The notes beneath the pieces were generated by a model, which was not told where the DNA came from, made no database searches, and saw nothing but the letters and a program-made list of their open reading frames with translations. Below, in pieces: positions 24,577 through 44,427 of a DNA stretch of 45,606 nt. Numbering within the stretch: position 1 is the stretch's first letter; the number at the start of each line of letters is the position of its first letter. The stretch spans positions 1 to 45,606 of the forward strand of contig MGEK01000001.1 in assembly GCA_001791325.1 (NCBI GenBank). Reading direction: 5' to 3'. The translations under genes were made by a program, and so were the position numbers. This stretch comes from Candidatus Uhrbacteria bacterium RIFCSPLOWO2_01_FULL_47_25 (lineage in GTDB: Bacteria > Patescibacteriota > Patescibacteriia > GWA2-46-9).

Positions 24577-24655
24577 GCAGAAAACCACGGGTGGCCCACT
24601 CCGCCGTAGTAGCCTACGGCTACGAAGGCTGGATAAACCCGTGGGGCTCCACGAG
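24577..24655. repeat. Nested hairpins in the leader before the calcium-repeat gene
   Basis: CCACGGGT near 24583 pairs with ACCCGTGG near 24637, and GTAGCCTACGGCTAC (24611-24625) forms an inner hairpin. A reading frame runs through it from a GTG at 24591, but this part looks like repeat sequence, so I do not count it as coding. Confidence 0.6.
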
Positions 24656-24680
24656 ATTTATAGTTAACTTTTTTGCAATT

Positions 24681-25445
24681 GTGACACAATGGTTTACAGG
24701 ACTTTGGAGTAATTTGTTGGCGGCTATTCAACGCCGCTCGCAAATTTTGCTTTTTGTCCTTGTTCTTTTTATCGGTGTGTCAACGGTTGTACTCGGGTCT
24801 GTAAGCATTAAGCGTTCAATTGAAGCGCCGTTTGCCCAGAACAAGACCAATGCTCTGGCTACCGCGGAACAAACTGGCGCGATTAATATAAAAAAAGACA
24901 CGGATGGAGACGGGCTTCTTGACAGTGATGAATTAAGCGCGTATGGCACAAGCCCGTACTTGGCTGACTCTGATTCTGACGGCGTTTCTGACGGCGAAGA
25001 AATCGCTAAAGGCACTGACCCTAATTGTCCGGCCGGAAAAACCTGCACAACAAGCGCCATTCAGCCGCCCGCAACAAGCGGTAGTTCAATTGGCGATATA
25101 TTGACTGGTAGAATTTCCTCACCCTCTGCCACTCCATCTGTGGCGGAACTTCGCGATATTTTAAAGCAGGGTGGGTTGCCAGCAAACCAAGTTGATGCTC
25201 TGTCTGACGAGCAGATTCTGCAAGCTTATAACGAGTCATTGGCAAAAACACAAGGTAATAATTCTTCCCCAGACACGGCGCCGGCAACTGATACTTCAAG
25301 CAACTTAACCGCCGAACAAATCCGTTCTTTGCTTATTAGTAATGGCGTTCCAGAAGAAAATATTAAAAATGTGTCAGATGAAGACTTAATGCGTATTTAT
25401 GATGAAACAATACAAGAGCTTCAACAAAAGCAGACTAAACCATAG
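24681..25445 (+). CDS. Membrane-anchored protein with calcium-binding (thrombospondin type 3-like) repeats
   Basis: 254 residues from the GTG at 24681. A longer version from GTG 24591 would add 30 residues encoded by hairpin repeats, so I prefer the shorter; TATAGT at 24659-24664 may even start a short-leader transcript. Residues about 20-40 form a membrane helix (ILLFVLVLFIGVSTVVLG). Residues about 72-115 hold D-x-D-x-D-G repeats (DTDGDGLLDSDE, DSDSDGVSDGEE), a calcium-binding pattern common in exported proteins. Two related helical repeats follow (AELRDILKQGGLP...LSDEQILQAY and AEQIRSLLISNGVP...VSDEDLMRIY). It ends 2 bases before the start of the 2837-residue gene, so the two are translationally close and probably work together. 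Confidence 0.75.
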   Translation: MTQWFTGLWSNLLAAIQRRSQILLFVLVLFIGVSTVVLGSVSIKRSIEAPFAQNKTNALATAEQTGAINIKKDTDGDGLLDSDELSAYGTSPYLADSDSDGVSDGEEIAKGTDPNCPAGKTCTTSAIQPPATSGSSIGDILTGRISSPSATPSVAELRDILKQGGLPANQVDALSDEQILQAYNESLAKTQGNNSSPDTAPATDTSSNLTAEQIRSLLISNGVPEENIKNVSDEDLMRIYDETIQELQQKQTKP

Positions 25446-25447
25446 AT

Positions 25448-28400
25448 GTGAAAATAAGTGTGATAACCCCTAGACGTCAACAACAAAAGATAAATTTTGT
25501 TCGGCGTAAAATCGTCGTTGGGATTTTAGTGGTCGCTACCATATTTACTTTTGGACTAGGAACGTCTCGCCCCGCAAGTGCGCAAGTAGGGATTCCAGTC
25601 GTTGATGAGCTTGTAGCACTTATCCTAGAGACAGGGGTCACAATTCGTGAGATAGGCGATGAAGCGCGTGATACAGTGAAACTTTCTTGGAACGAACTTA
25701 TTCAACAGTTGAAGAGAGCCGCCGCAATCAGCGTTCGTCAGGGTGTTAGATTTTTCTTAACGAAATTGGCTACCGATACGTCTACATGGATAGCGAGTGG
25801 CGCTAAGGGGCAAGGTCCTCTTTTTATAACACAGGGTTGGGGCGATTATCTTAAGGACGCGGCTGACGGGGCGGCCGGGGTAATTCTTGATAATTTAACT
25901 CGCTCTACTACTTATGAACAGCGAGCTGGTTCATGCGAGTGTAGTGCCAGTGATGGTTCAAGTTTTTCAAAAAGTGCGGCCAATGAAGCAGAGTGTACAG
26001 GACTAGAAAGCTCTCCCGACGTTCAGTGTACTTGGACTCCGCCAGGAAAAGCCGTGAAGGAAGCAGGCGGTCTTCTTGAGGGCTTCAATATCTGCGCGCC
26101 AGACCTGGATGTGCAATTGAGAATCACTTTAGGACTTACGCCAACGGGACTTGGTCGTCCTAAATGTAGATTTAGTACCTTGAAGCGAAACTGGGAAAGA
26201 GAAATAACTAAAGCCAGTTTTTTGCCGGATTTTCAGCGCACATTTAATCCTGAAGAAAATGATTTAGGAGTCGCCCTGGGCTTGCATACGAATTTGCTAG
26301 CACAGCAAGAGCAAGCACGATTAGAGGCAGTGATGGCCCGTTCAGAGGGGAAGGGTTTTAAGCCCCTTACTGAGAAAATCTCGGAAGCTATTAACCTCCC
26401 GGCGGAGGGAGTAAGGAATATTTTTGGTAGTACCCTGGATGTAAGTTTCGGTGGCGAATTATTTCCTACCGGAGATATCATTGCTGACGCGGTTAGCGCT
26501 TTTACTAATACTTTAGCTACTCAATTTCTTAATAATCTCATCAAAAATGGCCTTGGCGGTGGAGATTATGGGCCATCCGGACGTCGCGCGCGAGGAACAG
26601 CTACTTTAACTAACCCTGAAGCAGAAGTAAGAGTTGAGGGTGTTAATGCAGCCCGTATTCGTTTGGTAAAGGACATTGACCCAAGCTTCAGCACACCCGG
26701 CCGCTATGATGTTTTGTCTTTGCTTGTGAGTTGCGCTAATCCATCCAAGCACGGGCCGAACGATTGCGCCATCACCGACAACATGAGAAATGCCATTAGC
26801 CAGAAAATGACAGTGAAGCAGGCTGTTGAGAAAGGATTATTTAATGCCACCGGGCCATTTGGATTCAGCAGTTGGGATCCACAGCCGATTGAGCCAAGCC
26901 TGACCGATGGCATACCCTATCGCTCAATTTTGTTGATGCGTAAATACCGTATTGTGCCGGTTGGTTGGGAATTGGCTGCCAAATATATTCAGTATTTTGA
27001 TAAGAAACCGCACTCTCTAAGCGAGCTTATTAAAACTGGTGGATGCGATGGTGGCGGAGTATATGACTGTAAAGATAGCCCCTTTTATCACTTCATTGAT
27101 CCCGATTGGGTGCTTTCAGCGCCAGACGCGTTTTGCAAACTGCAAGGGCCGGGGCCAGAGATTATTTCCAGCCAAGTTAGTCAGGGTAGTGATCTTAATA
27201 AAGACGGCAAATATGATGGACCAGACGAAGAGCCGCCGTCTGTGCAGGTGACGCGCAATGAAAATTACTGCGCTGACGAGCAAACTTGTATTCAGAAAGA
27301 TTCAAAGGGCGTTTGTAAATTCTACGGTTATTGTACTGAAGAAAAACGCGTTTGGAATTTTGGCGAAAACAGCTGCCAGCCGGAATTTAACACTTGCGCG
27401 ACATTAGCAAACAAAACAACGGGCGAAACAGTTTCTTATCTTTTGAATACCGTTGATTTTGACAGTTGCGACGCGAAGTCAGTAGGTTGCAAGCAATACA
27501 GCCGCAATCAAGAAGCGAACGGTCTTTGGAGCAGCACCGCCTACCCTGATAGTATTCACTTGAACGCCCAAGCTAAATCCTGTGATGCGGAAAATGCTGG
27601 CTGCCGGGCGTATATTAGGACGGGCTTTGGTCTTCCGGCGGGCGATGTTGTAGGGGTTAACCTGCTTCCAAACGGGAGTTTTGAGGCGTTAGATAGCACA
27701 AATACGAACCAACCTTTGGGCTGGTCTATTACTCATGGTAGTTTACAGCTAGGTGATGCCCGTGACGGGCAACGATTCTATCGTTCTGATGAAGCTGATG
27801 CGATTGTGAATGTTTCCTCGGATCTTATTATACCATTAAACAAAGATGGACTTTATGCGTTGTCGTTTTGGGCTCGCGGTAGCAATGGGGGAGTTCCAAG
27901 TGTTTATTATAATAGTAGTGATGGTGGGGGCGGTCAGTTGCGCCTTTTGTCTGATCTTACACTTACAGGAGAGTGGCAGAAGTATATTGTTGCGATACAG
28001 CTCGGCCAGCTTAATCCATTACTTCAAAAATTGCTTATAAAGATACCGGCTAATTCCGATCTTGATGCTGTGAAACTTGAGGTTGGCGATCAGGCAACAG
28101 GTTACAGTAATTACGGATCGGGCGTAACAGCGGCCTCGCACCTTAAGAGACCGCCCGATTATCTCGGCTGTTTATCAGACCCTGATTCATCAGCCTGTCA
28201 ACCCTACGCGCGCTATTGTAAAGCTGAAGAGGTTGGCTGCCTGCGCTACACGCCAACGCCCAGTGGCGCGCCCATTACTTCTGTGCGTGGCGATGTCTGC
28301 CCCAACGAGTGCGTGGGCTATGATACTTACACGCAAAGCAAGACATTTTTTGAAAGCGCGAGGTTTCAGGATTTAATACCCAAAACGGCCAATAAATGCT

Positions 28401-31400
28401 CGGCCGCTGCTGTTGGCTGTGATGAGTTTACTAATTTGGATATAGAAAAACAGGGCGGCGAAGCCAAAGAATATTATCAGAATTTGCGTTTCTGCCAGAA
28501 GCCCACTGGTGGTACTGACGAAGGTATTTTCTACACTTGGGAAGGGTCGGACACCACTGGCTTCCAGCTAAAGGTGTTCCAGCTGAAAAAGACGAATGCG
28601 GCCACCGAGCCGTGGGCGCCGTGCGTCAGTCTTGATTGGACAGGTTCCAACACAGCGATTTGCGCCGATACTACGAGTAGTCGGCTCGTATCTGGCACCT
28701 GTCTCTCCACTGATCTCGGTTCCAATCCCGATTGCCGTCAGTTCTACGACCCCGACGGTAACATTTCCTACCGCCTTCTCTCGCGCACCATCAGCATTTC
28801 TAACGATTGCCGTCCTTATCGCAAGACTTCATCAACACAATCCGATTGTGCAACGAGTAGCGGTTATTGGAATAGCGCCGCCAGTGCTTGTCTTTATCAA
28901 GCCATTCCCAAAGAAGGACGCCGTTGCAGCGCCGCCGCGGCTGGGTGCCGCGAGTATCGCGGGGGCACGTCAGCTAACTATCGCACTATTTTTAACGACA
29001 CATTTGAATCCGGCACAGGCGGCTGGGCTAACGGCAGCTTGAGCCCAGTGTCCAGTGTTGTTGGCGGACATTCATACAAGCTTCAACTTGCTGGTTCGTC
29101 ATTGTTAAAATCACTATCCTTGACTCAAGGGAACTTGGTTACGGAGACTTCTTATATTATGAGTTTTTGGGCGCGTAGTCAGGAAGATTCGGCGACTATT
29201 AGCGGCAGTTTTGTGCCCGCTGTCGGTAATCCCATTGCATTCTCCGCCTCTGGCGAAGGGTGGACGCTAAGTACGGATTGGACGCCCCGCCACAGTGACC
29301 CCTTTACTATAAGTAAGGGTAGTGAAGGGTATCTCACTTTGTCAGTAACTGGCGACGACGCCTATATTGACAACATTGAACTGAAATCCAACGTCAATAC
29401 TTACTATCTCATCAAAAATTCATGGAATACGCCCGGTTCATGTTTGGCGCCGGAGCAGATGCTGGGATGTCAAGCTTTTAAGGTGAGCGACGGCAAGACG
29501 CGCAATATTTGGCGATTTGGGCCAAGTTGTAATGATAAAGTAGTTGGCTGTGAAGAGCTTGTTGATACACAAAACACTACCATGGGCGACAGTGCGCCGT
29601 TTGAACAATCGTTTGACCTAGATAGGGTCGGTGACAACGAACTGAAGATCCCTGCCGATACTATTGATTATATAGTCAATGATCCGTCCAAACAGTGCCG
29701 CTCTGAATTTCAAGGGTGCGAAGCATTGGGCGCGCCAGGTCAAAGAGTTGATGCCGCTTCGCCAACCCATCTGCGCAACAACCCCGATCAATACGAGCAA
29801 AACGGCGAAATTCTCTGTCGGTCAGAGCAACAAAATTGCGCCGCTTATACGACTAGCAAGAACACAGAAATATACTTCAAAGATCCTGGCAATAATGTGT
29901 GCCGTTATCTTGCCAATCGGCAATATCCTGGCTGGTACCGTGATGTGTGCTCTAACGATGCGGATGAATCTTGCACAACAGCCGCGGATTGTAAAGATAA
30001 TGGCGTGCCTGTTCCAGGAGCCATTTGCGGGCCGCCGCTGTCAAACAGCCAGCCGAACTGTCAAAATCCCAGTACTGGTATGCCCCGCACCTTAGCCTCT
30101 GGCGTTAAAGAGCCGAAGGATAAACGAGTGGGGCTTTGCCCAGCCGAGCAAAATTCTTGCACTGAATTTATAGACCCTCGTTCTGACTCCGAGCGCAATA
30201 TTATTTACAACGGGTCGTTCTTAGATTTGGATGGCAATGGCGAACCAGACGTGTGGGAGAATGACGATCCGCCCGATCCGCCATTTATTGGTTATGATTC
30301 ACCAGGGGGCATTAAAGTTTCGCAAAAAAATGGAAATGGATTAAGGCAAGAGGTGGATCTTGAAGGTCGTCAACTATACATTCTTACTGCTGAAGTGCAA
30401 GCTGGAACTGCCGCGGTGCCAGCCATGATTGGTTTGCGAGATTGTACGGGTGTTATGCCATCGTTGGACGGGTTACAGTCATCTATGGTTGATGTTACTT
30501 ATAAATCAGCGGGAGGTGATGGTGTGGCGGCTTTAATTACTCCAAAAACAGGATCATTCACGCGCTTCAGTGGACAATTCTATATGACAGGCGATGCGAA
30601 ATGCAATGTGGTGTTGGGCACGGCCGATATGTTGAGTTCGCCATCGTCTAGCGGCACCCCTGGCTACCATATTTTTAAAAACATTTCCTTACGTAAAGCG
30701 ATTATAGATTATCAACTTGCCGACAGAGTGGATCGGAAAAGCTGCGCCGGCGTGGTAGATAATAACACTTGCGTGTTATTCAACGAACGCGCCGTTGATT
30801 CTGGTCGCAGTGTGCAGGCTGGTGGCACAATAACTTATAGAAGCCTCACGTCAGATGCTGATACCAGCCCCACTGATGCTAAAATCGCCAACAGTTTAAC
30901 TGATATAACTTGTAATAATGGCACCTGTAGTAATTTTATTTCTCGTTCCTGCGTTTCTAATCAAGACTGTGCTTTGCCGTTTGATTCCAACGCCATTATT
31001 AAAGTCTCGCCTGACCGCGAATGCGCTTCTTGGCTATCTTGCCGTACGGCCCGAACAGTCACGGCAAACGGTGTTACTAAAAACATTTGTTTGGACGTGC
31101 AGAATTGTGAAGAGATGGATCCCAATACTGGTTTTTGTCTAAAGCAAGTATTGAGCGATGCTCCTGATAGCGATCTTACATATAAGCCGGGCAACGTTGA
31201 CCTTCTCAAAAACCGTTCCGGTTATTCGCACGTTGGTTTTGATTGGAGTCATTGTTCTATAACCGTCACGCAGTCATGTAGGCAAAATAGTAACTGCCCG
31301 GCTGGTGAGACTTGCATTAATCAAGTCCTGCAGGGCTATATGTCGCCCGCCTTTATGTCGCAAATTGATGGCGAAGTTACCGTGTATAACGGCAATTTTG

Positions 31401-33961
31401 AAATAGCGAATAGTGTTGGCAAACCTAGTGGCTGGGAAGGCTGGAGGAATGGCGAGAACTTCCGTGTTATTGATGATCCTCTGGCTGCCCAAAAAGCAGG
31501 CGTTACTTATCCAATGGAGGAACGCAAATTTTTGGAAGTGAATGCCAATAATACGGCACCCGCGGACGACAAAACCTACGTTTCTTATGATATTCCAGTT
31601 ACTCCCGCCACTGCCTATGTTATTTCTGCCTATCTAAATACGTTGCATTTCACGGGCAAAAGAGTTGAGGTGCGGGTTTATGAATACCCCGGCCCTACTG
31701 ATTTTGGTCCATATAATGCTACTCTCAACCTTCCGCCCGGTTTAGATTGGACTCTGGCAACTGATTACTTTAAGACCAAAAACAATACGCAGTCAATTAA
31801 AATTCAATTAGCATGGAATGCTTCTGGTAAATGTACAACGGGTGGCGCACAATGTGATAGTAATTCCGCTTGTGGGTTAATAAATGGTCCTTGCATATTT
31901 CCCCCCGTTGGTCTTTGGTACATTGATGACGTTAAAATTCAGCCAGCATTGCAATATCAAAAGAACGAACATCCTTTTGATACTCCCGATTTCCCTGATA
32001 AATCTAGTTACGAGTACGGACTTGTTACAAATGACTATCACTATGCCCCGCAATCCTGTCGGCTTTATCCCGAGCCTGACGCGCTGTCTTGCAGATATTA
32101 CGACGATAAAGGGCTTCGTCAGCGAGGCAAGCTTGGCTACTGCCTAGAATGGGATCCGCAAAATTCCAATTATTGCCTCCAGTGGTGGCCGGTGGATAGC
32201 GTCACTGGAGAAGACACAAATGAAGATAGAGCCGGATACAATGATCGCGCGCCGTTATACTACTGCCTTGATACTAGTGACAATTGGTTGCCGACGTATG
32301 ATCCATATTCAGGAGCTACAGGGTCAGAAGAAGTCAAAAATTTTCAGTGTGCCAATGTTAAAGGTGAGTTGACTGAATGTAAGTTTGTTAAAAACGAAGA
32401 GTATAGTCCCAAGGGCTACCTTCTTTTGGATGGAGCCAGTTCATTTAATATTTATAATTCAGACGTTGGTGATCCAGGTCATCATGTTGTTTATGGTTTA
32501 GTTGATAAGCCTGGAGATTGTGACGTTCATGACGGCGGGCAGGGATGTGAGATTCGTATCGGCGTTGAAGTTCACGACAGCACAGATGGCTATACACTTA
32601 AAGTAAAAAATGAAGCGGGGCAGACGTATCAAATTGGATCATGGAGAGAAGGTGATCCAAACGGCAGTTCCCCACCAGGCCCACCTTCGGAGGACGCCGG
32701 GAAGGGAAACATCATAAACATGGTCAGATACTATGATTTGGCTGACGCAATAGACCAGGATGGAAACCCCATCAAGCTTTCTGGTACATATCGTTATATC
32801 ATCATAGATGAGCTAACAAGTAGTAGTGTTTACATCCATAGTTTATGGTTTAGACCGAACTATAGTTGTAATTACATAATTCAGACGGTTACATCCACTG
32901 GCGAAAATAAAGCTTATGCTTCTCGTTTAGCGCAGGGAAGCAACTATTCAGCTTCTGTTCAAGGGGGCCTGTCGGGTGGTCCATATTTATATAGTCGCAG
33001 TGCTGACTTGACTCCATTTGGTGCTGCTGTGCCACCAGAACCTGTTGATACTCCCAGTGAGTGGGATGCAAAAAGTTTTATTGGTATTCAGCCACTCTTC
33101 CCAGAGCCGCCATTAAGCGATGGCACCATTGGGCAGGCGCGAGCAGGGGTTCCATACTCTTGTCAGCCCCAGAATTTTTTGGATCCCTCTAGTCAGCCAC
33201 AACAGTGCTCTTCATATCTAAGCAAGATTGGCATAGATACACAGCAAGGCGCTATTAATGTTATCCAAAATCTTTTCGTCCAAAGCTATGGTATATGGCA
33301 ATGGCAAGGAGATCAGTATGTTCCAACGACAAGTTTAACCGGCTTGAAAGAGCCATCCACGCAGTGCGGTAGCAGTAGCCCTGATTATCCGCCCCCTCTC
33401 AATGTGCGCCCAACATCTGCTGACGCAAAACCGTGCGGCGTTGCTCCTCAAGTGCCAGAAATTAGAATTAATAATTCAACTAGTTCCGTAACGCTTAATC
33501 GTATCGGCACTGTTACCCTAAGCTTCACGACCGTGGCAGATCCAGACCAGTTGCCGATTACTCACTATGCCGTTGATTGGGGCGATGGCACCAAGAGCAC
33601 ACAGGCCGGACTTCGTTTGCAGAGCCGCCCTTCCATGCAAAACGCCATCACTTTGGTGCATACTTACAGTTATGCTGATGTTGTACGTTGTGTTTCTAGC
33701 GGATTGTGCGCGTGTTTGCCACAACAGCCGGGAGATCCCGCGAATAGCTGTCGTATAAAGCCCCGCGTCCAAATCACCGACAACTGGGGCTGGTGCAATG
33801 GTAATAATCCCGGGCCACCCGCAAATCCTTTAACCAACGGCACCGGCTATTATGGCAGCGATTGCTTGACGAGTCTTTGGAATAGCACTTGCACTGATGA
33901 TGCTGTTAATGGCAACTTCGGTTCCTGTCGTTTAAGCCCCACCATTCAAATCACCGAATAG
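25448..33961 (+). CDS. Giant Cys-rich multidomain surface protein (2837 aa)
   Basis: Starts at GTG 25448, two bases after the upstream stop. Residues about 18-46 form a signal peptide (VGILVVATIFTF...PASA). Residues 47-370 are helical with amphipathic segments, then Cys-rich sequence. Between about residues 674 and 1570 a short motif recurs about ten times, C-x(5-7)-[GN/S]-C-x2-[YFL] (examples CDAKSVGCKQY, CDAENAGCRAY, CKAEEVGCLRY, CSAAAVGCDEF, CSAAAAGCREY, CRSEFQGCEAL). At least four jelly-roll, carbohydrate-binding-like domains are interspersed (openings such as NLLPNGSFE, NDTFESGTGGW, IIYNGSFLD, VYNGNFE). A PKD-like domain lies near the end (ITHYAVDWGDGT). No C-terminal anchor. In this lineage such giants sit beside VirB6/VirB4-like genes. 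A structural or adhesive role outside the cell is likely; disulfides could be made by the DsbA-like enzyme. Confidence 0.82.
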   Translation: MKISVITPRRQQQKINFVRRKIVVGILVVATIFTFGLGTSRPASAQVGIPVVDELVALILETGVTIREIGDEARDTVKLSWNELIQQLKRAAAISVRQGVRFFLTKLATDTSTWIASGAKGQGPLFITQGWGDYLKDAADGAAGVILDNLTRSTTYEQRAGSCECSASDGSSFSKSAANEAECTGLESSPDVQCTWTPPGKAVKEAGGLLEGFNICAPDLDVQLRITLGLTPTGLGRPKCRFSTLKRNWEREITKASFLPDFQRTFNPEENDLGVALGLHTNLLAQQEQARLEAVMARSEGKGFKPLTEKISEAINLPAEGVRNIFGSTLDVSFGGELFPTGDIIADAVSAFTNTLATQFLNNLIKNGLGGGDYGPSGRRARGTATLTNPEAEVRVEGVNAARIRLVKDIDPSFSTPGRYDVLSLLVSCANPSKHGPNDCAITDNMRNAISQKMTVKQAVEKGLFNATGPFGFSSWDPQPIEPSLTDGIPYRSILLMRKYRIVPVGWELAAKYIQYFDKKPHSLSELIKTGGCDGGGVYDCKDSPFYHFIDPDWVLSAPDAFCKLQGPGPEIISSQVSQGSDLNKDGKYDGPDEEPPSVQVTRNENYCADEQTCIQKDSKGVCKFYGYCTEEKRVWNFGENSCQPEFNTCATLANKTTGETVSYLLNTVDFDSCDAKSVGCKQYSRNQEANGLWSSTAYPDSIHLNAQAKSCDAENAGCRAYIRTGFGLPAGDVVGVNLLPNGSFEALDSTNTNQPLGWSITHGSLQLGDARDGQRFYRSDEADAIVNVSSDLIIPLNKDGLYALSFWARGSNGGVPSVYYNSSDGGGGQLRLLSDLTLTGEWQKYIVAIQLGQLNPLLQKLLIKIPANSDLDAVKLEVGDQATGYSNYGSGVTAASHLKRPPDYLGCLSDPDSSACQPYARYCKAEEVGCLRYTPTPSGAPITSVRGDVCPNECVGYDTYTQSKTFFESARFQDLIPKTANKCSAAAVGCDEFTNLDIEKQGGEAKEYYQNLRFCQKPTGGTDEGIFYTWEGSDTTGFQLKVFQLKKTNAATEPWAPCVSLDWTGSNTAICADTTSSRLVSGTCLSTDLGSNPDCRQFYDPDGNISYRLLSRTISISNDCRPYRKTSSTQSDCATSSGYWNSAASACLYQAIPKEGRRCSAAAAGCREYRGGTSANYRTIFNDTFESGTGGWANGSLSPVSSVVGGHSYKLQLAGSSLLKSLSLTQGNLVTETSYIMSFWARSQEDSATISGSFVPAVGNPIAFSASGEGWTLSTDWTPRHSDPFTISKGSEGYLTLSVTGDDAYIDNIELKSNVNTYYLIKNSWNTPGSCLAPEQMLGCQAFKVSDGKTRNIWRFGPSCNDKVVGCEELVDTQNTTMGDSAPFEQSFDLDRVGDNELKIPADTIDYIVNDPSKQCRSEFQGCEALGAPGQRVDAASPTHLRNNPDQYEQNGEILCRSEQQNCAAYTTSKNTEIYFKDPGNNVCRYLANRQYPGWYRDVCSNDADESCTTAADCKDNGVPVPGAICGPPLSNSQPNCQNPSTGMPRTLASGVKEPKDKRVGLCPAEQNSCTEFIDPRSDSERNIIYNGSFLDLDGNGEPDVWENDDPPDPPFIGYDSPGGIKVSQKNGNGLRQEVDLEGRQLYILTAEVQAGTAAVPAMIGLRDCTGVMPSLDGLQSSMVDVTYKSAGGDGVAALITPKTGSFTRFSGQFYMTGDAKCNVVLGTADMLSSPSSSGTPGYHIFKNISLRKAIIDYQLADRVDRKSCAGVVDNNTCVLFNERAVDSGRSVQAGGTITYRSLTSDADTSPTDAKIANSLTDITCNNGTCSNFISRSCVSNQDCALPFDSNAIIKVSPDRECASWLSCRTARTVTANGVTKNICLDVQNCEEMDPNTGFCLKQVLSDAPDSDLTYKPGNVDLLKNRSGYSHVGFDWSHCSITVTQSCRQNSNCPAGETCINQVLQGYMSPAFMSQIDGEVTVYNGNFEIANSVGKPSGWEGWRNGENFRVIDDPLAAQKAGVTYPMEERKFLEVNANNTAPADDKTYVSYDIPVTPATAYVISAYLNTLHFTGKRVEVRVYEYPGPTDFGPYNATLNLPPGLDWTLATDYFKTKNNTQSIKIQLAWNASGKCTTGGAQCDSNSACGLINGPCIFPPVGLWYIDDVKIQPALQYQKNEHPFDTPDFPDKSSYEYGLVTNDYHYAPQSCRLYPEPDALSCRYYDDKGLRQRGKLGYCLEWDPQNSNYCLQWWPVDSVTGEDTNEDRAGYNDRAPLYYCLDTSDNWLPTYDPYSGATGSEEVKNFQCANVKGELTECKFVKNEEYSPKGYLLLDGASSFNIYNSDVGDPGHHVVYGLVDKPGDCDVHDGGQGCEIRIGVEVHDSTDGYTLKVKNEAGQTYQIGSWREGDPNGSSPPGPPSEDAGKGNIINMVRYYDLADAIDQDGNPIKLSGTYRYIIIDELTSSSVYIHSLWFRPNYSCNYIIQTVTSTGENKAYASRLAQGSNYSASVQGGLSGGPYLYSRSADLTPFGAAVPPEPVDTPSEWDAKSFIGIQPLFPEPPLSDGTIGQARAGVPYSCQPQNFLDPSSQPQQCSSYLSKIGIDTQQGAINVIQNLFVQSYGIWQWQGDQYVPTTSLTGLKEPSTQCGSSSPDYPPPLNVRPTSADAKPCGVAPQVPEIRINNSTSSVTLNRIGTVTLSFTTVADPDQLPITHYAVDWGDGTKSTQAGLRLQSRPSMQNAITLVHTYSYADVVRCVSSGLCACLPQQPGDPANSCRIKPRVQITDNWGWCNGNNPGPPANPLTNGTGYYGSDCLTSLWNSTCTDDAVNGNFGSCRLSPTIQITE

Positions 33962-34290: not shown

Positions 34291-34914
34291 TTATCGCGGT
34301 TTTAAGTTGAAATGTTTGAGGTATGTTTTAGAATGTTCTATTTTTTCAATTACGGCGTAGTGAAAGTGCGGCTTGATTTGATAAAAATCTTGCATCGCCT
34401 GAATAATCGCGTAACATTCATAAGGGTGCAGGTAAACACTTTTTTGAATTTGTAAAAATCCAAGTTCTTTTAGTTTGCGGCGCATCGCGTCGCGAGTCAG
34501 TCGTTCGTCGTGGGGAATGTCAAAAAAGACCAATCGCCACCTACCATCCCATTTCGCAGGAGTTTTAATACGCGCGTTTTGAAGTTCTATTTCGATAAGT
34601 TTGCGTTTGCCCTCACCTGTGACTTGAATAAAGCTGTTGCCGCGACGCTGTACCTTTTCAACGTATCCTCCATTTAGCAGTCTATCAAGAGCGCGCTCTA
34701 TTTCCCACATGGACATCCGGCGACCTCGCCGACCACTGCCCGGCGTTAGAATTTGTAAGGCATTGGGGGCGATGAGCGCAACTGACAAAATTCCGGCGAC
34801 ACTCAAGGCTATAAGGATAGCCCGTCCAATGTTTCGTCGGCGGTTATGATGTTTATTGGCGGTATTTTCTTTTTTGCGAGTCATAGTTATTTTTGCGTTA
34901 TGACTAGTAGCCAT
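34291..34914 (-). CDS. PaaX-like regulator (second copy), membrane-associated
   Basis: 207 residues from the ATG at 34914; MTRKK at 34884 is an alternative start, and a longer frame to 35067 is low-complexity and unlikely. A hydrophobic helix (about residues 30-55, ILIALSVAGILSVALIA) follows a basic stretch, so this copy may be membrane-bound. Residues 70-120 resemble a winged helix (MSMWEIERALDRLLNGGYVEKVQRRG, shown here as its parts MSMWEIERAL and GGYVEKVQ). The C-terminal part is Cas2-like as in the first copy: WDGRWRLVFFDIPHDERLTR, RRKLKELGFLQIQKSVYLHPYE. It is transcribed toward the giant gene and away from the secretion operon. An AAAGGTGATAGG stretch upstream of the ATG may hold a ribosome site or -10 element. 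Confidence 0.8.
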   Translation of the reverse strand: MATSHNAKITMTRKKENTANKHHNRRRNIGRAILIALSVAGILSVALIAPNALQILTPGSGRRGRRMSMWEIERALDRLLNGGYVEKVQRRGNSFIQVTGEGKRKLIEIELQNARIKTPAKWDGRWRLVFFDIPHDERLTRDAMRRKLKELGFLQIQKSVYLHPYECYAIIQAMQDFYQIKPHFHYAVIEKIEHSKTYLKHFNLKPR

Positions 34915-35192: not shown

Positions 35193-35534
35193 ATGGCAAA
35201 TGAATCAGGGCAAAATGTTGACGCACGATTGTTGGGTTTGGGGCAAGATACAACAGGCGGCGATGAAAATATGCGCAGGCGTCAACTTGATGGCGAAAGG
35301 CAGACGATGAAACGCGCCGTCAGTTTAGTTACTGGTGGAGGTATAACTCAAACATTGGCAGGCCAAAAGAAAATGTCAGTGGATAAATTAATTCTATTAG
35401 CAACCGGAGGGACTATATCATTGGTAACCATTTTTTATATGTTCGTGGTTATCTTTACAATCTTTATTGCAACAGCAGTAGTAGTTAATATTATTTACCG
35501 TTTCGTGACAGCCGTAACGAATGTTGTTAAATAG
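35193..35534 (+). CDS. Small membrane protein of the secretion-like operon
   Basis: 113 residues, first gene after the operon promoter. The N-terminal 65 residues are polar (Gly/Asp/Gln/Arg-rich); residues about 68-105 hold one long or two short hydrophobic helices (ILLATGGTISLVTIFYMFVV, IFTIFIATAVVVNIIY). The family is not recognised. It lies 6 bases before the VirB6-like gene, so it probably belongs to the same membrane complex. Confidence 0.7.
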   Translation: MANESGQNVDARLLGLGQDTTGGDENMRRRQLDGERQTMKRAVSLVTGGGITQTLAGQKKMSVDKLILLATGGTISLVTIFYMFVVIFTIFIATAVVVNIIYRFVTAVTNVVK

Positions 35535-35540
35535 CTACGG

Positions 35541-38336
35541 GTGTTTATTATGATTAAGAATCGTCTAAATTTTTTCTGCCAGCGGCGATTTTATATTTCT
35601 TGTTTTGCGGTTCTTGTCAGTTTAGTTTGGTTCGGCATAATCACCGCCCATGCTGCTGACCCACCTGTACAGGTGGGCGGACAAGAGGTGGGTGGGTGTT
35701 CTTGGTACAACATAACTTGTTGGGTCCCTCTTTTAGTGGCAACGCTTGCCTCGGTCATTGTTTATATCCTTGGTCAATTGATAGTTGGTTTAGTTTTTAT
35801 TTTAGTTTGGATAAGTCAATATAACGGTTTTATATCGTCTCCTGTTGTAGTGCAAGGATGGAGCGTGGTACGCGATATATCTAACATGTTTTTTGTTTTA
35901 GTGCTTTTGATTATTTCTTTTGGCACTATTCTGCATGTTCAGCAGTATCAAATGAAAACTTTATTGCCGAAGGTAATACTGATGGCAATATTGGTGAATT
36001 TTAGCAAGGCCATTGCAGGGTTATTTATTGATTTTGCGCAGGTGGTAATGCTGACGTTTGTTGCCGCATATCAGGGAGTGGGCGCAGGGAATTTGTTTGA
36101 TGCTCTCAAGCTACAGAAGATACTTAGTATTAATTCCAGATCCAGTGAGACGATTCAAGGTTTATCAATTGCCGGCGCATATATTTTGGCGCTTATTTAC
36201 ACTATTGTGGCCCTAATTGTAATATTGGCATTTGTGTTGATTTTAATAGTACGAATTGTGATGTTGTGGATTCTGGTTGTGTTTTCTCCTTTGTCTTATG
36301 TTTTGTCAGTAGTTCCGGCTGGACAAAAGTACGCTCAACAATGGTGGGACATGTTCTCCAAGTATGTCATTATTGGTCCGGTGTTGGCATTTTTTTTGTG
36401 GCTTTCTTTAGCCACTCTACCAAATATTACGGAGAGTGGGCCACTCAATCCAGGCAAATCATATAGCGAACAAAGCGGCGAACAGATTAGTGATTTAACG
36501 GTTGGAGGTGTTAGTGTTATTGAGGCAGGGTCACCACAGCAAATGGTTGGCTTTATTATAAGCATAGCTATGCTCATTATGTCTCTCGTTTTTGCCCAGC
36601 AGGTGGGTGGGGCGGTGGGAAAAATCGCTGGGAACGCGTATGGGAAAATTACGAGCGGTGGGGCAAAAATGGCGCTTGCGCCGTTGCGTGGTGCTACGTG
36701 GGCCGGTGGAAAGGCGGTCAACTGGGGTGGCCGTAGGTTTGATGATTTTCAGGCTGGTTTACAAAAAAGGTTCATGAATACCAAATACGGTCAGAAGATT
36801 GCTCAGTCCAAGAGGGGCCAGAGATGGGGGCTAGGAGCGCTTGCCACGGAAGGTGTTCAAATCCGAACACTTAAGACTGCTTGGGAAGAACGCGCCAAAC
36901 GAGTCGAGCGTGATCGTTTGGGGGCGTCCGCTGGTACAGCCGAAGATATTTTAAGCCGTATAATATCTCGTGGGCAAGAACAAGAGACAGCTGGCCTGGA
37001 ACAACATAACGCTCTTGTGGCAGAGGAGCAGAAGAAAATAGCAGTGATGGGTGAAGACCAAGAGGTTTGGGTGAAGAGACTGGCAGATGTTACTGAGGAG
37101 TATGGAGACGTAGATCAGGCAACGGGGAAAAGAAAGAGACGGGTTAAGAAAGGCGATGAAAGAAGAGCTGAAGGGATACTTTTGAACCTGGTGAAAAATC
37201 ATGATTTGAACGAAATCATGAAGCATGAAGAGTTGGGTACAGCCTACAATCACGAGTATACACCAGAAACTACGGTGCAGCTGATAAAGGATTTGTTCGG
37301 TGAGGGACAAGAAAACCAAACTGTTGCTCGGGTAGCTTTCCGTGTGCAAGAGGTGGGTCTGCAGAACGATGAAGGGTTCCTGAAGGGTATTGCGAGTAAC
37401 GGCAAAACAGGGTACAAGTTGAATAACTTCTTTGGGGATGCCGTACAAGCACAAGTGTTTAAAGATCGTTTCAACAGAACCGGAAAACGAGATGAACAAG
37501 TACCCATCACAGAAAGTGAAAGAGCAACAGCAAAGAGCATAGTATTGAATGAACGAAGAACATCGCGCGAACAGCAGCTTGAAGAAGTTAAAAATGTTGA
37601 ATCCCGTGAACTTTACCACGTTGATTATGCGCAAACCACTCAAGCGCAGCAAGCGGTAGTTAATGAAAGTGTAGCTAAGCGGTGGGGTGGTACGAGTGAT
37701 GATGATATTGAAAAATTAATTAAAAAAGAACAGCAAGCAAACTACGCGGCAGTTTACATTGCAAAGCGTAGTTTCCGAAGCGTTGCTCAACAGGCGCGGT
37801 TCCAAGACTTTATGCCCGAGTTTGCCGATGGAGACGGTAATAGGATTGCTGGTCAATTTGGAGATCAAGGGGCGGCAATCTTTAAGGCCTCTGGTGCCGC
37901 ACTTGCTACGCAGTGGGGAGCCATGAACGAAGAAACAAGAAAATATTTGCAGGCGAATATTGATCAATTTGTAAAGTACTTTGAAAATTTCGGTGCAAAT
38001 ATGAAAAAAGAAGAGAAAGAAAGCTTTGCGATGTTGCTCACGTCCATTGCTAGAGGGAAAGCTATAACAAGCGCCGTCGATATAGGTACAATGGATGATC
38101 TTAATGCCGCGATCAAGGCAAACACACCAGGTAGGGTAGAACTAATTAACAAGGTAAACGCAAACCGTAGAACGAAAGGTTTGGAAGTTATTGATGTCCT
38201 TCCGACGGGGTATGAAGCCACGAATAGCGCTTTGTTTAATTCAGTCAGACCACCGCCCAGACCGACTGCTCCCAGTAGTCCAGGCACCGGTGGAACACCT
38301 TCTGGTGGAGGTGGTGGCTCAGTTGGATCGCCATAG
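35541..38336 (+). CDS. VirB6/TrbL-like polytopic membrane protein
   Basis: 931 residues from GTG 35541; an ATG at 35550 is an equally good start. The N-terminus is a signal-like helix (ISCFAVLVSLVWFGIITAHA). About six to seven further helices occupy residues 60-365, including WVPLLVATLASVIVYILGQL, ISNMFFVLVLLIISFGTI, the LILIVRIVMLWILVVFSPLSY segment (given here as IVRIVMLWILVVFSPLSY) and FIISIAMLIMSLVFAQQVGG. This matches the VirB6-like core found with PrgI and VirB4 in this lineage; VirB6 forms part of the channel of type IV secretion systems. Residues about 385-900 are a long charged, Glu/Gln/Lys-rich cytoplasmic domain, and the end is Pro/Gly-rich. An 18-bp palindrome encodes PPVQVGG just after the signal. 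Confidence 0.82.
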   Translation: MFIMIKNRLNFFCQRRFYISCFAVLVSLVWFGIITAHAADPPVQVGGQEVGGCSWYNITCWVPLLVATLASVIVYILGQLIVGLVFILVWISQYNGFISSPVVVQGWSVVRDISNMFFVLVLLIISFGTILHVQQYQMKTLLPKVILMAILVNFSKAIAGLFIDFAQVVMLTFVAAYQGVGAGNLFDALKLQKILSINSRSSETIQGLSIAGAYILALIYTIVALIVILAFVLILIVRIVMLWILVVFSPLSYVLSVVPAGQKYAQQWWDMFSKYVIIGPVLAFFLWLSLATLPNITESGPLNPGKSYSEQSGEQISDLTVGGVSVIEAGSPQQMVGFIISIAMLIMSLVFAQQVGGAVGKIAGNAYGKITSGGAKMALAPLRGATWAGGKAVNWGGRRFDDFQAGLQKRFMNTKYGQKIAQSKRGQRWGLGALATEGVQIRTLKTAWEERAKRVERDRLGASAGTAEDILSRIISRGQEQETAGLEQHNALVAEEQKKIAVMGEDQEVWVKRLADVTEEYGDVDQATGKRKRRVKKGDERRAEGILLNLVKNHDLNEIMKHEELGTAYNHEYTPETTVQLIKDLFGEGQENQTVARVAFRVQEVGLQNDEGFLKGIASNGKTGYKLNNFFGDAVQAQVFKDRFNRTGKRDEQVPITESERATAKSIVLNERRTSREQQLEEVKNVESRELYHVDYAQTTQAQQAVVNESVAKRWGGTSDDDIEKLIKKEQQANYAAVYIAKRSFRSVAQQARFQDFMPEFADGDGNRIAGQFGDQGAAIFKASGAALATQWGAMNEETRKYLQANIDQFVKYFENFGANMKKEEKESFAMLLTSIARGKAITSAVDIGTMDDLNAAIKANTPGRVELINKVNANRRTKGLEVIDVLPTGYEATNSALFNSVRPPPRPTAPSSPGTGGTPSGGGGGSVGSP
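35660..35677. repeat. In-frame palindrome in the VirB6-like gene
   Basis: CCCACCTGTACAGGTGGG, perfect over 18 bp, encoding PPVQVG directly after the signal-like helix. The spot is a flexible linker, like the insertion points in leuS and comFC. Confidence 0.7.
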
Positions 38337-38416: not shown

Positions 38417-40519
38417 ATGCCCACAACCGACATCATGAATTACATTATTAAGCTTGGGGATAAATCTCTTAAGATTTTTGAGCTTGAGGCGTTGGTGGAA
38501 GAATGCGTCGATGGATTTGATCTTCGGAAAGCCAAGGAATTAGCCAAGCAACTTGCGTCCGTGACGCAGGGGTTGTCATTAGATGTAAGGCCACAAGTGC
38601 AAGGCATGATTGCTCGATTGAAGATATTGGCTCTTCCTTTGTACTATGATCGAGAAGATGTCTTAACCCCATTTCGGGTTGGTCTCGGCCCAGCGCTCCA
38701 TCATGAAACGCCATATGTCATTCAGCGACTTCAAGCGAAGTTCCTTGATTTTGATATTGTTGATCGCGATCAGTGGCGCCAGGATATTGTAACTACTCTT
38801 CATCAAAATAGCGATGTCGTTACGTCGCATGGGCCAGCCGGGACACCCAATGCGGTCGGCACTATTTCGACGTGGTTGATGGATTACGATCGCGCGGAGG
38901 GTAGTGGTATTATTGAAGATGTTAAAATTTCAGGATACCTCTTTCGATCCAAATCAACAACAATGTTGTCGCCCGACGATCGGCAAGCACTAGTGCGATT
39001 GATTCAGCTTTATGAATATTTGAAGCTATCATCAGCCACTTCACTTGGCATTGAAGAATCTTTAGATTTTGAGAAAGACGGTGTGATCTATGATTTAAAT
39101 CGTGGTCATCCGATTCCCATTCTTGATTTGCGAACAGCAACCTCCGATTTAACTAAACTCGTCACACCGGCTGTTACCCCTATTGTTCACAAGACTTCGT
39201 CGACCGTTTCGCCACCATCTTCGCCACCACCACCCAAAATAGAGGCAACATCACCTTTGCCACCTGTTCCGCCCGCGTTCAAAACGCCGACAGTGCCTCC
39301 GCCGCTACCACAACCGGCCGTTGGCGTAGGCAAGGCCGACGTCCACCCTGCTCCGCCGCCAAAAATTTCGCCTCCGCCCACACTAGCGCCAGTTTCTCCC
39401 TTACCTCCGCCGCCCAAATTATCCACGTTGCCAGCCGCCGCACCGCCTAAACAACCTTCAGTCATTTTGCCTCAATTGCTAGCCAAAGAATTGCCTGCGC
39501 CGTCAGCTAAACAAATATCTTCATTGCCCCAAGAGTTTAGCAAGAAGCCATCCACGGCGCCAAGCGCGCCATCTGGCATCGTTGTTGATAAAGTAGAGGA
39601 ATTGACAAAAAAAGTGATGCGCGAAATAAGCGTGCCCAATCTTGACCCCGAACAAAAGACAAGGCTGGAGAATGTTATACGATTGCGTTTGCGGGAAGTT
39701 CGTGACACGGTTGATACGCGCGATGCGTTGCTGAAGAGACGCGTTGAGGGCGGGGTTGAACTCTCTGATCAAATGGCTGATGAAGTTATCACTGTAATTA
39801 TGAAATATTTGCCAGAAGCGCACCGTCCGTTTAGTGGGGTGGTGGCGGCTATTGCGGAGAGTGATGGCTTAACGCCGCCATTACCTCCTCAAGATTTAGA
39901 ATTAGAAAAAGCAAAACAAACAATACCAAAAGCGTTCCAGTCAGTGATGTCAAAAGATACTACTCTAACACCAGTCGCTTCTTCAGGCTCGCCGTCCGCT
40001 GTAAAAACCGTTGAGGCTGATTTAAAGTCCGCCGCACCAGAGCCGCTCCCGTCTCCTCCGCCACTAGTTGATAGTTCCAAGGCGCCGGGCATTGTCCCAA
40101 TGAGTTCTGAACAAAAAATTTTTGAGACGCCGCCGCCAACACCGGTCGGACAAACGCGCAAACCGGCCATGATTGATGTCCGCTCCAAGCCGCCGGTAGT
40201 CGGGCCAATTGATGAATTGCGACTATTTACCTTAGCCGATTTTCGTCGTTTGGACGCCGATCCTCGTCGCGCTACTTCGCGACTGCATGAAAAAATTAAA
40301 CTTCTTGAGGAAGAATCGTACGTTAAAATGGTTGAAGGCATTAGGGCTTGGCGCTTGAGCCCCTTGAATCAGCTTTATCTTTCTATTGGGCACGAGAGTC
40401 TGGAAGCTGGTAAAAATGTTGCCGATGCCATTCGTGAACGACGTGAAGCCGGTAAGGTCGCCCTCACTGAAGAGGAATTTGGGGCTCTGTTGGATTTGAA
40501 TAAACAATTGAGATTTTAG
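38417..40519 (+). CDS. Pro-rich cytoplasmic protein of the secretion-like operon
   Basis: 700 residues without signal peptide or membrane helices; the ATG at 38435 (MNYIIKLGDKSLKIFELE) is an alternative start. Residues 1-240 form a helical domain. Residues about 255-390 are Pro-rich (runs such as SPPSSPPPPKIEA and PPPKISPPPTLAPV), probably an extended linker. Residues about 395-480 form a helical domain (VEELTKKVMREISVPNLDPE, RLRLREVRDTVDTRDALLKR), then a second Pro-rich linker, and a C-terminal helical domain (about 600-700, LFTLADFRRLDADPRRATSR). I do not recognise the family. It lies between the VirB6-like and PrgI genes, so a cytoplasmic regulator or scaffold for the machine is plausible. 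Confidence 0.7.
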   Translation: MPTTDIMNYIIKLGDKSLKIFELEALVEECVDGFDLRKAKELAKQLASVTQGLSLDVRPQVQGMIARLKILALPLYYDREDVLTPFRVGLGPALHHETPYVIQRLQAKFLDFDIVDRDQWRQDIVTTLHQNSDVVTSHGPAGTPNAVGTISTWLMDYDRAEGSGIIEDVKISGYLFRSKSTTMLSPDDRQALVRLIQLYEYLKLSSATSLGIEESLDFEKDGVIYDLNRGHPIPILDLRTATSDLTKLVTPAVTPIVHKTSSTVSPPSSPPPPKIEATSPLPPVPPAFKTPTVPPPLPQPAVGVGKADVHPAPPPKISPPPTLAPVSPLPPPPKLSTLPAAAPPKQPSVILPQLLAKELPAPSAKQISSLPQEFSKKPSTAPSAPSGIVVDKVEELTKKVMREISVPNLDPEQKTRLENVIRLRLREVRDTVDTRDALLKRRVEGGVELSDQMADEVITVIMKYLPEAHRPFSGVVAAIAESDGLTPPLPPQDLELEKAKQTIPKAFQSVMSKDTTLTPVASSGSPSAVKTVEADLKSAAPEPLPSPPPLVDSSKAPGIVPMSSEQKIFETPPPTPVGQTRKPAMIDVRSKPPVVGPIDELRLFTLADFRRLDADPRRATSRLHEKIKLLEEESYVKMVEGIRAWRLSPLNQLYLSIGHESLEAGKNVADAIRERREAGKVALTEEEFGALLDLNKQLRF

Positions 40520-40633: not shown

Positions 40634-41068
40634 ATGCAGCAATTCGTCGTTCCACAATTTATTGACATAGAAGATAAAATCATTGGGCCAATTACCACCC
40701 GACAGTTTATTATTACACTGGTGACCGGTTTTTTTATTTTTTTAAGCTATCGCTTCAGTGACTTCAGCTTGTTTATCGTTTTAACTGTTATTTGGTCGCT
40801 TATCGGAGGATCTTTGGCGTTTATAAGAGTTAATGGTCGACCATTTCATTTCTTTTTGCTAAATTTAGTACAAACATTGCGTCGACCTCGCCTGCGCATA
40901 TGGAATAAGCGTTTAACAACCATTGAAGTTAGCAGTGAAATGAAAATGACTACGGCAAGCGTGGCGCATACTCCAGTAGTTTCGGCGAGAACACCGCCGC
41001 CTTCTTCACGCCTTTCCGAACTATCTTTAGTTGTTGATACGGGAGGAGTTTACCGCGGGGAATCATAA
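40634..41068 (+). CDS. PrgI family membrane protein
   Basis: 144 residues. PrgI family proteins are small bitopic or two-helix membrane proteins encoded next to VirB4/TraC in type IV secretion clusters; they correspond to VirB3. Here MQQFVVPQFIDIEDKIIGPI leads into two helices (about 25-42, QFIITLVTGFFIFL, and about 45-68, LFIVLTVIWSLIGGSLAFI), followed by INGRPFHFFLLN-type sequence (VNGRPFHFFLLN) and a polar Ser/Thr-rich tail. The order PrgI, TraC N-domain, VirB4 is the usual one. Confidence 0.88.
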   Translation: MQQFVVPQFIDIEDKIIGPITTRQFIITLVTGFFIFLSYRFSDFSLFIVLTVIWSLIGGSLAFIRVNGRPFHFFLLNLVQTLRRPRLRIWNKRLTTIEVSSEMKMTTASVAHTPVVSARTPPPSSRLSELSLVVDTGGVYRGES

Positions 41069-41097: not shown

Positions 41098-41775
41098 GTG
41101 GCTCGTAAAGCAACTTCATCAACCAAGAGTACCCAAAGGTTTTTAGAGATAGCTGAAATCAGGGAAGATGTCGTCGTTTTGAAAGACGGCACCTTGCGCG
41201 TTGTCTTGCTTGTTTCTTCAATAAACTTTGCCTTAAAGTCAGATGACGAGCAAACCGCCATTATTCAAGGTTATATGAGTTTTTTGAATTCCCTTGATTT
41301 TCCATTACAAATAATTATTCAATCTCGCAAACTCAATATAGCGAATTATTTGAATAAACTCGGCGGACTGGAAAAAGAGCAAACTAACGATCTATTAAAA
41401 ATGCAAACGGCGGAGTATCGGCAGTACATTAGCGAACTGGTAGAATTAGGCGAGATTATGAATAAAAGATTCTATGTTGTTGTGCCCTATGATCCGTTGT
41501 CAGACAGGCAGAAAGGATTTTTTAAACGTTTTCAAGAGGCCCTGCGGCCAACCATTGTTGTAAAATTGAGCCAGGAGAGATTTCGTCGTCATCGCCACGA
41601 ATTGATGCAGCGGGTGGAACATGTTATTTCCGGCTTGAATTCAATGAGTCTGGAGGTGGCGGTGTTGGATACGCAAAGTTTAATAGAGTTGTACTACAAT
41701 ACTTATAATCCTGAATTAGCCGGCCTTACTCCGTTGGTTGATATGGATAAATTGCAAGTGGAGGGGGCAAGTTGA
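41098..41775 (+). CDS. TraC/VirB4 N-terminal-domain-like protein
   Basis: 225 residues from GTG 41098. It starts near a family-typical core, FLEIAEIREDVVVLKDGTLRVVLLVSS (shown here in part as IREDVVVLKDGTLRVVLLV), then EQTAIIQGYMSFLNSLDFPL, IIIQSRKLNI, and RFYVVVPYDPL. This is the N-terminal domain normally fused to the VirB4/TraC ATPase, here a separate gene directly upstream of the ATPase gene. No Walker motifs. It probably contacts the membrane part (PrgI/VirB6-like). Confidence 0.85.
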   Translation: MARKATSSTKSTQRFLEIAEIREDVVVLKDGTLRVVLLVSSINFALKSDDEQTAIIQGYMSFLNSLDFPLQIIIQSRKLNIANYLNKLGGLEKEQTNDLLKMQTAEYRQYISELVELGEIMNKRFYVVVPYDPLSDRQKGFFKRFQEALRPTIVVKLSQERFRRHRHELMQRVEHVISGLNSMSLEVAVLDTQSLIELYYNTYNPELAGLTPLVDMDKLQVEGAS

Positions 41776-41821
41776 TTGAGAATTTAGAATATGGAATATA
41801 GAATAAAGATTGGAGCCCAAA

Positions 41822-43708: not shown

Positions 43709-43837
43709 CCCCCACCACTAGCCGGGCACATATTGCCGAAACTAACGATATTAAAGTTATTGTCAAACTTTTATGAGATTAATCCATAACGAACAACTAA
43801 CTAAACTCTTGGGTCTAGTGCCCGACTAGTGTGGGGG
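43709..43837. repeat. Long imperfect inverted repeat before the anchored protein gene
   Basis: CCCCCACCACTAGCCGGGCA (43709-43728, arm to 43729) pairs with GTGCCCGACTAGTGTGGGGG (43818-43837) with one mismatch and one bulge, loop 88 bases. The right arm ends 5 bases before the ATG at 43843 and supplies the GGGGGTAGG in the ribosome-site position. Its TAGTGTGGGGG end matches the repeat at 3120-3178. Confidence 0.7.
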
Positions 43838-43842
43838 TAGGT

Positions 43843-44427
43843 ATGCAATTAAACATTGATCGTCGCAAAATAATTATAACTGCGGTGGTGGTAATTTTAC
43901 TGCTCATTGCGATTGTTGGCGGTTGGTGGTATTGGCGAAGTTCTGTCAGTCCCATCAGTGGTCCGGCTACCCAGCCGCCACCTTTAGCCAATTCACTGCC
44001 GCCCATAAAACCTACGTCAGTGCCAGTGAGAACACCAGACGAAGAACGGCAAGAGACCGTCAGCCGTTTGGTCAGGCTTTTTGCCGAGCGTTTTGGCACG
44101 TTTTCAAATCAGAGCCGCTATGAGGGTATTAATGATTTGATGGCCGTGACAACTGACAGCTTTCAGCGTTGGCTTCAAGAGAAATACTTGCCAGAGATTA
44201 AACAAAAAAATATCAACACCACTTACGCGGGACAAACGACCAGGGTAATGAGCGTGACAGTTGATGAGATAACGGATGAAGGCGGACAAGCGACGGCGCG
44301 TGTTCAGCAAGTGATTACCGTCGCGGCGGGAGAGGACGAAGTCAGATACCCCATCTTAAAAGTTACGGTGGTGCGTCAAGACAGCATGTGGCTGGTAGAT
44401 AGCGCTTATTGGGAGAAAACGCCATAA
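43843..44427 (+). CDS. Membrane-anchored NTF2-like protein of the secretion-like operon
   Basis: 194 residues from the ATG at 43843; a GTG at 43831 in the same frame would start inside the palindrome and is less likely. A helix (about residues 9-31, IIITAVVVILLLIAIVGGWW) follows a short basic end, so the bulk is outside. A Pro-rich linker (residues 36-65) leads to an alpha+beta domain (TVSRLVRLFAERFGTFSN, SFQRWLQEKYLPEI, VMSVTVDEI, ARVQQVITV, VTVVRQDSMWLVDSAYW) whose order of helices then strands fits the NTF2-like/VirB8-like fold. VirB8 is an NTF2-like bitopic protein of type IV systems; I infer the similarity from layout only. Confidence 0.65.
   Translation: MQLNIDRRKIIITAVVVILLLIAIVGGWWYWRSSVSPISGPATQPPPLANSLPPIKPTSVPVRTPDEERQETVSRLVRLFAERFGTFSNQSRYEGINDLMAVTTDSFQRWLQEKYLPEIKQKNINTTYAGQTTRVMSVTVDEITDEGGQATARVQQVITVAAGEDEVRYPILKVTVVRQDSMWLVDSAYWEKTP

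What the first reader, a model, noticed from the sequence alone, without database searches (positions are those of the whole stretch)
25448..33961. 2837-residue surface protein with a repeated C-x5-7-GC-x2-Y motif
About ten copies of this short double-cysteine motif alternate with carbohydrate-binding-like jelly rolls. I do not know a named family with this repeat. It may define a new disulfide-rich structural unit of the cell surface in this lineage.
Basis: partly seen in the sequence, partly recalled or inferred. Interest (0 to 1): 0.7.

Follow-up and report, generated by a model that had tools for sequence, protein, structure and literature searches.

The report
Giant cysteine-stapled secretion-locus surface protein
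Nearly every sampled species of one class of tiny, probably host-dependent bacteria carries one giant, cysteine-rich exported protein next to its type IV secretion genes, and it may be the part that touches the host cell.

Summary
The 2837-residue ORF has ten C-x6-8-[G/N/S]C-x2-[Y/F/L] motifs (0.5 expected) and 98 cysteines. They are not a loose tandem repeat. Across 42 orthologs from about 40 families of one Patescibacteria class, the ten cysteine pairs sit at fixed positions and are 95-100% conserved. The gene was found in 54 of 57 sampled relatives. A profile of its cysteine region matches 34/34 class genomes and 0/346 other genomes of the phylum, although VirB4 is in 365/380. No Pfam, NCBIfam, PHROGs or PDB sequence profile matches the cysteine units. 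The two intervening jelly rolls are ordinary CBM_4_9/CBM22-type domains.

The new point is context. The gene lies in the type IV secretion locus, just downstream of a TSP3-repeat protein (36/38) and usually upstream of a VirB6-like gene (26/33). Its N-terminal ~250 residues recur in short proteins occupying the same slot in other classes. My reading: a secretion-system surface component that grew a roughly 2200-residue disulfide-stapled, carbohydrate-binding extension in one class and acts in host contact. Locus association and conservation are shown; disulfides, surface position and adhesion are inferred. A 2025 survey of this secretion system found no PrgB-like adhesin.

The parts
25448..33961 (+). 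Giant exported protein, 2837 aa, 98 Cys
   Evidence: orthologs
25448..25585 (+). Signal peptide, only clear hydrophobic segment; Ala at the presumed cleavage site 98% conserved
   Evidence: hydropathy scan; cleavage is inference
25589..26482 (+). N-terminal domain (res 48-345), shared with short proteins of the same locus slot in other classes
26645..27247 (+). Second conserved N-terminal region (res 400-600, LRKxRIIPVGWELAA, W554 invariant)
27260..27412 (+). Six-cysteine cluster (Cys 608-650), near-invariant
27467..27499 (+). Motif copy 1 (Cys 674/681)
27581..27613 (+). Motif copy 2 (Cys 712/719)
27653..28087 (+). Jelly roll 1, CBM_4_9-type (res ~736-880)
28217..28249 (+). Motif copy 3 (Cys 924/931)
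28298..28330 (+). Variant copy (Cys 951/955, C-x3-C-x-G-Y; C-x5-GC-x2-Y/F in 7 species)
28397..28429 (+). Motif copy 4 (Cys 984/991)
28925..28957 (+). Motif copy 5 (Cys 1160/1167)
28973..29398 (+). Jelly roll 2, CBM22/CBM_4_9-type (res ~1176-1317), Z 17 to CBM22
29441..29479 (+). Motif copy 6 (Cys 1332/1341)
29528..29560 (+). Motif copy 7 (Cys 1361/1368)
29696..29728 (+). Motif copy 8 (Cys 1417/1424)
29816..29848 (+). Motif copy 9 (Cys 1457/1464)
30137..30169 (+). Motif copy 10 (Cys 1564/1571)
33425..33817 (+). C-terminal PKD-like segment (DWGDGT ... DNWG), by eye, no Pfam hit
24591..25445 (+). TSP3-repeat membrane protein, immediately upstream in 36/38 class loci
35193..35534 (+). 113-aa protein with two TM segments, between giant and VirB6-like gene
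35541..38336 (+). VirB6-like polytopic membrane protein (8 TM)
   Evidence: downstream in 26/33 loci; the VirB6 label is inference
38417..40519 (+). 700-aa protein without TM, conserved in the locus
40634..41068 (+). PrgI/VirB3-like
41098..41775 (+). TrsD-like (VirB4 N-terminal half)
41810..43708 (+). VirB4 ATPase
43831..44427 (+). Membrane protein, VirB8-like by eye
   Evidence: label is inference
12506..13219 (+). DsbA-like thiol oxidoreductase, adjacent to a T4SS pilin gene
13230..14291 (+). T4SS pilin (PF18895) with Cys-rich tail (26 Cys)

Best explanation
The protein is an exported component of the class's chromosomal type IV secretion system. Its N-terminal domain (about residues 48-345) is the part common to the locus across the phylum and probably docks on the membrane translocon near the VirB6-like protein. 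The remaining roughly 2200 residues are a class-specific extension. In it, repeated C-x5-GC-x2-Y units, each most likely closed by its own disulfide, and two carbohydrate-binding jelly rolls form a long, protease-resistant structure that reaches out and binds the surface of the host cell before or during translocation. Shown: export signal, locus membership, shared N-terminal domain, near-invariant cysteines, CBM fold. Inferred: disulfides, docking partner, extended shape, surface location, host adhesion.
For: Gene order TSP3 - giant - VirB6-like - 700-aa protein - PrgI - TrsD - VirB4 on one strand across many families. N-terminal profile A2, built only from giants, finds short proteins in 8 genomes of other classes, and all 8 lie in the slot upstream of the VirB6-like gene, three with a TSP3 protein just upstream. 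With those added, 23 genomes outside the class match. VirB4 in 365/380, cysteine-region profile in 34/34 class genomes and 0/346 others. Ten motif pairs 95-100% conserved in 42 orthologs. Segments related to each other by hhalign (B-E 94%, B-C 91%, A-B 87%). Second cysteine of the copy at 951 moves from +4 to +7 in seven species while the first stays, which fits a local bond; partly conserved cysteines are lost in sequence-near pairs (1134/1148 r=1.0, 908/917 r=0.93). CBM fold Z 17 and 13. VirB4, TrsD, PrgI, the VirB6-like and the 700-aa protein hold 0-0.43% Cys against 3.45%. DsbA-like in the window, VKOR in the genome. No second TM or C-terminal anchor in most orthologs. The published survey reports no PrgB-like adhesin in Patescibacteria (PMC12102498).
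Against: No experiment shows surface location, adhesion or disulfides. The N-terminal domain has no recognised homolog or fold (model confidence 70, pTM 0.37), so docking is positional inference. In 7 of 33 loci no VirB6-like gene was seen within the sequence held. VKOR is not universal in the class (22/34; DsbB in 3 of the other 12), though a DsbA-like protein is in 12/12 of those lacking VKOR. One 97%-complete class genome (G054) has no match. Sugar-binding residues of the CBM folds were not examined.
Confidence: 0.6

Rival explanations
1. It is a general cell-envelope or surface-layer structural protein that merely shares an operon with the secretion genes.
For: Size, single copy, near-universal in the class, no known adhesin domain.
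Against: Its N-terminal domain marks the same secretion-locus slot in other classes, in short proteins without the cysteine rod.
Confidence: 0.2
2. It is a carbohydrate-scavenging or scaffolding protein: the CBMs hold polysaccharide for uptake.
For: Two CBM_4_9/CBM22-type folds; dockerin hits in two orthologs.
Against: No catalytic domain found; no sugar-use genes recognised among the window proteins scanned; secretion-locus position.
Confidence: 0.1
3. It is a substrate of the secretion system, passed to or released near the host.
For: Encoded in the locus; no membrane anchor beyond the N-terminal signal.
Against: Sec-type signal peptide with conserved cleavage Ala; N-terminal domain conserved as a locus part in other classes.
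Confidence: 0.07
4. The cysteine units are a diverged known family (EGF-like, growth-factor-receptor type or similar).
For: Whole-model Foldseek list includes Reelin and Elapor1.
Against: No sequence-profile match in Pfam or PDB; those structural hits have rmsd over 30 A and probably reflect the jelly rolls.
Confidence: 0.1

Closest known systems
PrgB-type adhesins of Gram-positive conjugation systems (MPF-FATA)
   Same: Large exported surface protein encoded with a FATA-like VirB4/PrgI system; works like it in the proposed role
   Different: No sequence match seen; no cell-wall anchor; cysteine-rich with CBM folds; general knowledge plus PMC12102498, PrgB itself was not compared here
TraN, Cys-rich mating-pair stabilisation protein of F-like systems
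   Same: Cysteine-rich secretion-associated surface protein (from general knowledge)
   Different: Far smaller and outer-membrane bound in Gram-negatives; not compared here
CBM_4_9 / CBM22 carbohydrate-binding modules
   Same: Jelly rolls at 736-880 and 1176-1317 match above Pfam cut-off and at Z 13-17
   Different: Here embedded between cysteine units and not attached to an enzyme
Short N-terminal-domain proteins of other Patescibacteria classes (L113-L120)
   Same: Homologous N-terminal domain, same slot before the VirB6-like gene
   Different: 280-823 aa, 2-12 Cys, no cysteine rod
FhaB/DUF2341 giant proteins of Patescibacterium danicum (PMC11809585)
   Same: Giant proteins in Patescibacteria, proposed adhesins
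   Different: Reported as patchy and FhaB-type; the paper does not describe a cysteine-rich secretion-locus protein in the passages read

Membership tests
CBM_4_9 (PF02018), jelly rolls only | Score above curated cut-off | tested here: met
   40.4 bits vs 25.9; 29/42 orthologs match at E<=0.1
CBM_4_9 (PF02018), jelly rolls only | Beta-jelly-roll fold | tested here: met
   CBM22 Z 17.1, rmsd 2.2, 134 aligned; CBM4-2 Z 13.1
CBM_4_9 (PF02018), jelly rolls only | Sugar-binding residues | not tested
   -
FATA-like type IV secretion locus | VirB4 of the CD1110 type | tested here: met
   NF045971 350 bits vs 325
FATA-like type IV secretion locus | PrgI/VirB3 | tested here: met
   PF12666 32.9 bits vs 27
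FATA-like type IV secretion locus | VirB6 | tested here: inconclusive
   8 TM segments, NF045848 E 0.021 only
FATA-like type IV secretion locus | Relaxase nearby (conjugation) | not tested
   none recognised among the window proteins scanned; no dedicated search
PrgB-type adhesin | Sequence homology to PrgB/antigen I-II domains | tested here: inconclusive
   no such Pfam or NCBIfam match for the giant; PrgB not compared directly
Known cysteine-rich families (EGF and others) | Sequence-profile match of the cysteine units | tested here: not met
   Pfam over 42 members; PDB profile searches A3 and A4 empty at E<=5
Known cysteine-rich families (EGF and others) | Fold match of the cysteine units | tested here: inconclusive
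   units barely tested by the structural search
VirB5 pilus-tip protein | Fold or sequence match of the N-terminal domain | tested here: inconclusive
   no Pfam hit, no structural match above Z 4.3, low-confidence model

The most novel reading that the evidence does not exclude
One bacterial class has turned a small type IV secretion component, found in several classes of the phylum, into a giant host-contact device built from a new, self-closing two-cysteine unit, present in practically all its members; it would be the missing adhesin of the Patescibacteria secretion system in that class.
Probability: 0.4. Interest if true: 0.8.

Novelty: new variant of a known kind. Interest (0 to 1): 0.62.

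Why it matters
How Patescibacteria recognise and hold their hosts, and what their near-universal type IV secretion system does, are open questions; a 2024 review calls the system's role in Saccharibacteria 'completely unknown' (PMC11665869), and the 2025 survey found no PrgB-like adhesin (PMC12102498). A single-copy, class-wide giant protein in that locus with conserved cysteines and carbohydrate-binding folds gives a concrete, testable candidate. The cysteine unit is also a candidate new domain family with a profile now available from 42 species.

Tried and rejected
Tandem-repeat reading: rejected, since the copies are orthologous fixed positions. Universality of VKOR as support for disulfides: expected, not met (22/34 in class, 140/346 outside), so oxidative folding rests on DsbA-like proteins, which are present in 12/12 genomes lacking VKOR. 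Giant cysteine-rich proteins near VirB4 in 20 genomes of other classes: none over 950 aa with more than 10 Cys, none with the motif. Plasmid search with a short N-terminal-domain protein: no match. Structure search with the N-terminal model: nothing above Z 4.3. Viral fold library: mostly phage tail proteins, which probably match through the CBM-like folds. Naming the class: not possible with the tools; ABY1 is a guess from its share of the sample (34/380) and from the published note that VirB8 homologs sit mainly in ABY1 (PMC12102498). The genome-contig scan returned one locus (L021, 'Patescibacteria group bacterium').

Full report
Observation. The frame at 25448-33961 (+) codes for 2837 residues with 98 cysteines. 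Ten copies of C-x6-8-[G/N/S]C-x2-[Y/F/L] occur, against about 0.5 in shuffled sequence; 42 orthologs average 8.8 against 0.49.

Conservation. A search of 57 related genomes with the whole protein found it in 54, as open frames of about 1200-3900 residues, some cut by contig ends. I fetched 41 loci and aligned 42 proteins. All ten motif pairs lie at orthologous positions and are 95-100% conserved. Eight or nine of them have a spacing of exactly six residues in nearly every species, Gly before the second cysteine is the commonest residue at most copies, and an aromatic at +3 is usual. In all, 48 columns are at least 90% cysteine, 33 of them within residues 590-1580. So the motif is a constant of one protein family and not a variable repeat array.

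Relationship among units. Profile-profile comparison of segments 660-735, 905-1050, 1050-1175, 1318-1400, 1400-1515 and 1550-1600 gives probabilities up to 94%, and 98% between the two jelly rolls. This fits growth by internal duplication of a cysteine module and a jelly roll.

Disulfides (inferred). At the variant copy (residue 951) most species have C-x3-C-x-G-Y, but seven have C-x5-GC-x2-[YF]: the second cysteine moves by three positions while the first stays. Cysteines that are only partly conserved are lost in pairs near in sequence (1134/1148, 908/917, 1059/1085). Both fit local bonds. L059 keeps Cys 924 but lacks its partner, an exception. A DsbA-like protein lies in the window and VKOR in the genome, but VKOR is in only 22/34 class genomes.

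Structure. A model of residues 590-1580 built on 42 sequences has mean pLDDT 79.5 and pTM 0.66; it is all-beta, with short three-residue helices at several motifs followed by a strand. The jelly rolls match CBM22, CBM16 and CBM4 modules with Z 13-17. The cysteine units themselves were barely tested by the fold search, as the tool notes.

Distribution. A profile of residues 920-1050 matches 34/34 genomes of the class and none of 346 from the rest of the phylum; VirB4 is in 365/380 of the same sample. Three class genomes have no match: two are 73% and 88% complete, one 97%.

Locus. Downstream in the window are a small two-TM protein, a VirB6-like protein, a 700-aa protein, PrgI, TrsD-like, VirB4 and a VirB8-like protein. 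In 36 of 38 loci with enough upstream sequence a TSP3-repeat protein lies directly upstream on the same strand; in 26 of 33 with at least 5 kb downstream a VirB6-like gene follows.

Origin of the N-terminus. A profile of residues 48-600 built from giants alone finds eight short proteins in other classes (E 1e-5 to 3e-17). All eight lie on the same strand upstream of a VirB6-like gene, six of them within 80 bases, three with a TSP3 protein just upstream. Adding them raises the count to 23 genomes outside the class; this second figure rests on an iterated profile, while the first eight are supported independently by position. The reading is that a small secretion component acquired the cysteine rod in one class; the reverse, loss of the rod elsewhere, was not tested with a tree.

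Function. Export follows from the signal peptide; most orthologs have no other hydrophobic segment. Host contact is inferred from locus, size, CBM folds and the published absence of a PrgB-like adhesin (PMC12102498). It is a proposal, not a result.

Novelty. No library searched names the family, and in the papers searched I found no description of it; the paper library is limited to open-licence papers. I file it as a new variant of a known kind (secretion-associated surface protein) with a candidate new domain.

Noticed in passing
13230-14291 and giant residues 163-196 (25934-26035): The T4SS pilin has a Cys-rich tail (26 Cys); a stretch of it looks like the small Cys segment near the giant's N-terminus. 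By eye only; most orthologs lack it there.
   Followed up: no
4749-9071: 1440-aa protein with VWA and several SpaA prealbumin-like domains, another large surface protein candidate.
   Followed up: no
22351-22950 and 34291-35067: Two PaaX_M (Cas2-like) proteins on either side of the giant gene.
   Followed up: no
L093 2813-4801, L099 1941-4772, L103 17631-20000, L106 9419-11764, L107 10589-12796: Near VirB4 in other classes there are Cys-rich proteins of 660-940 aa (18-28 Cys) without the motif; possible functional counterparts.
   Followed up: partly
G035 contig C2, 644560-651574 and 688972-695986: The giant's matches appear twice, in inverted orientation with identical scores; a duplicated locus or an assembly artefact.
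   Followed up: no
L114 13238-14737: The short N-terminal-domain protein seems to match the profile twice (residues 47-335 and 408-487).
   Followed up: no
A1 members: Two orthologs carry a dockerin type I match inside the conserved region.
   Followed up: no
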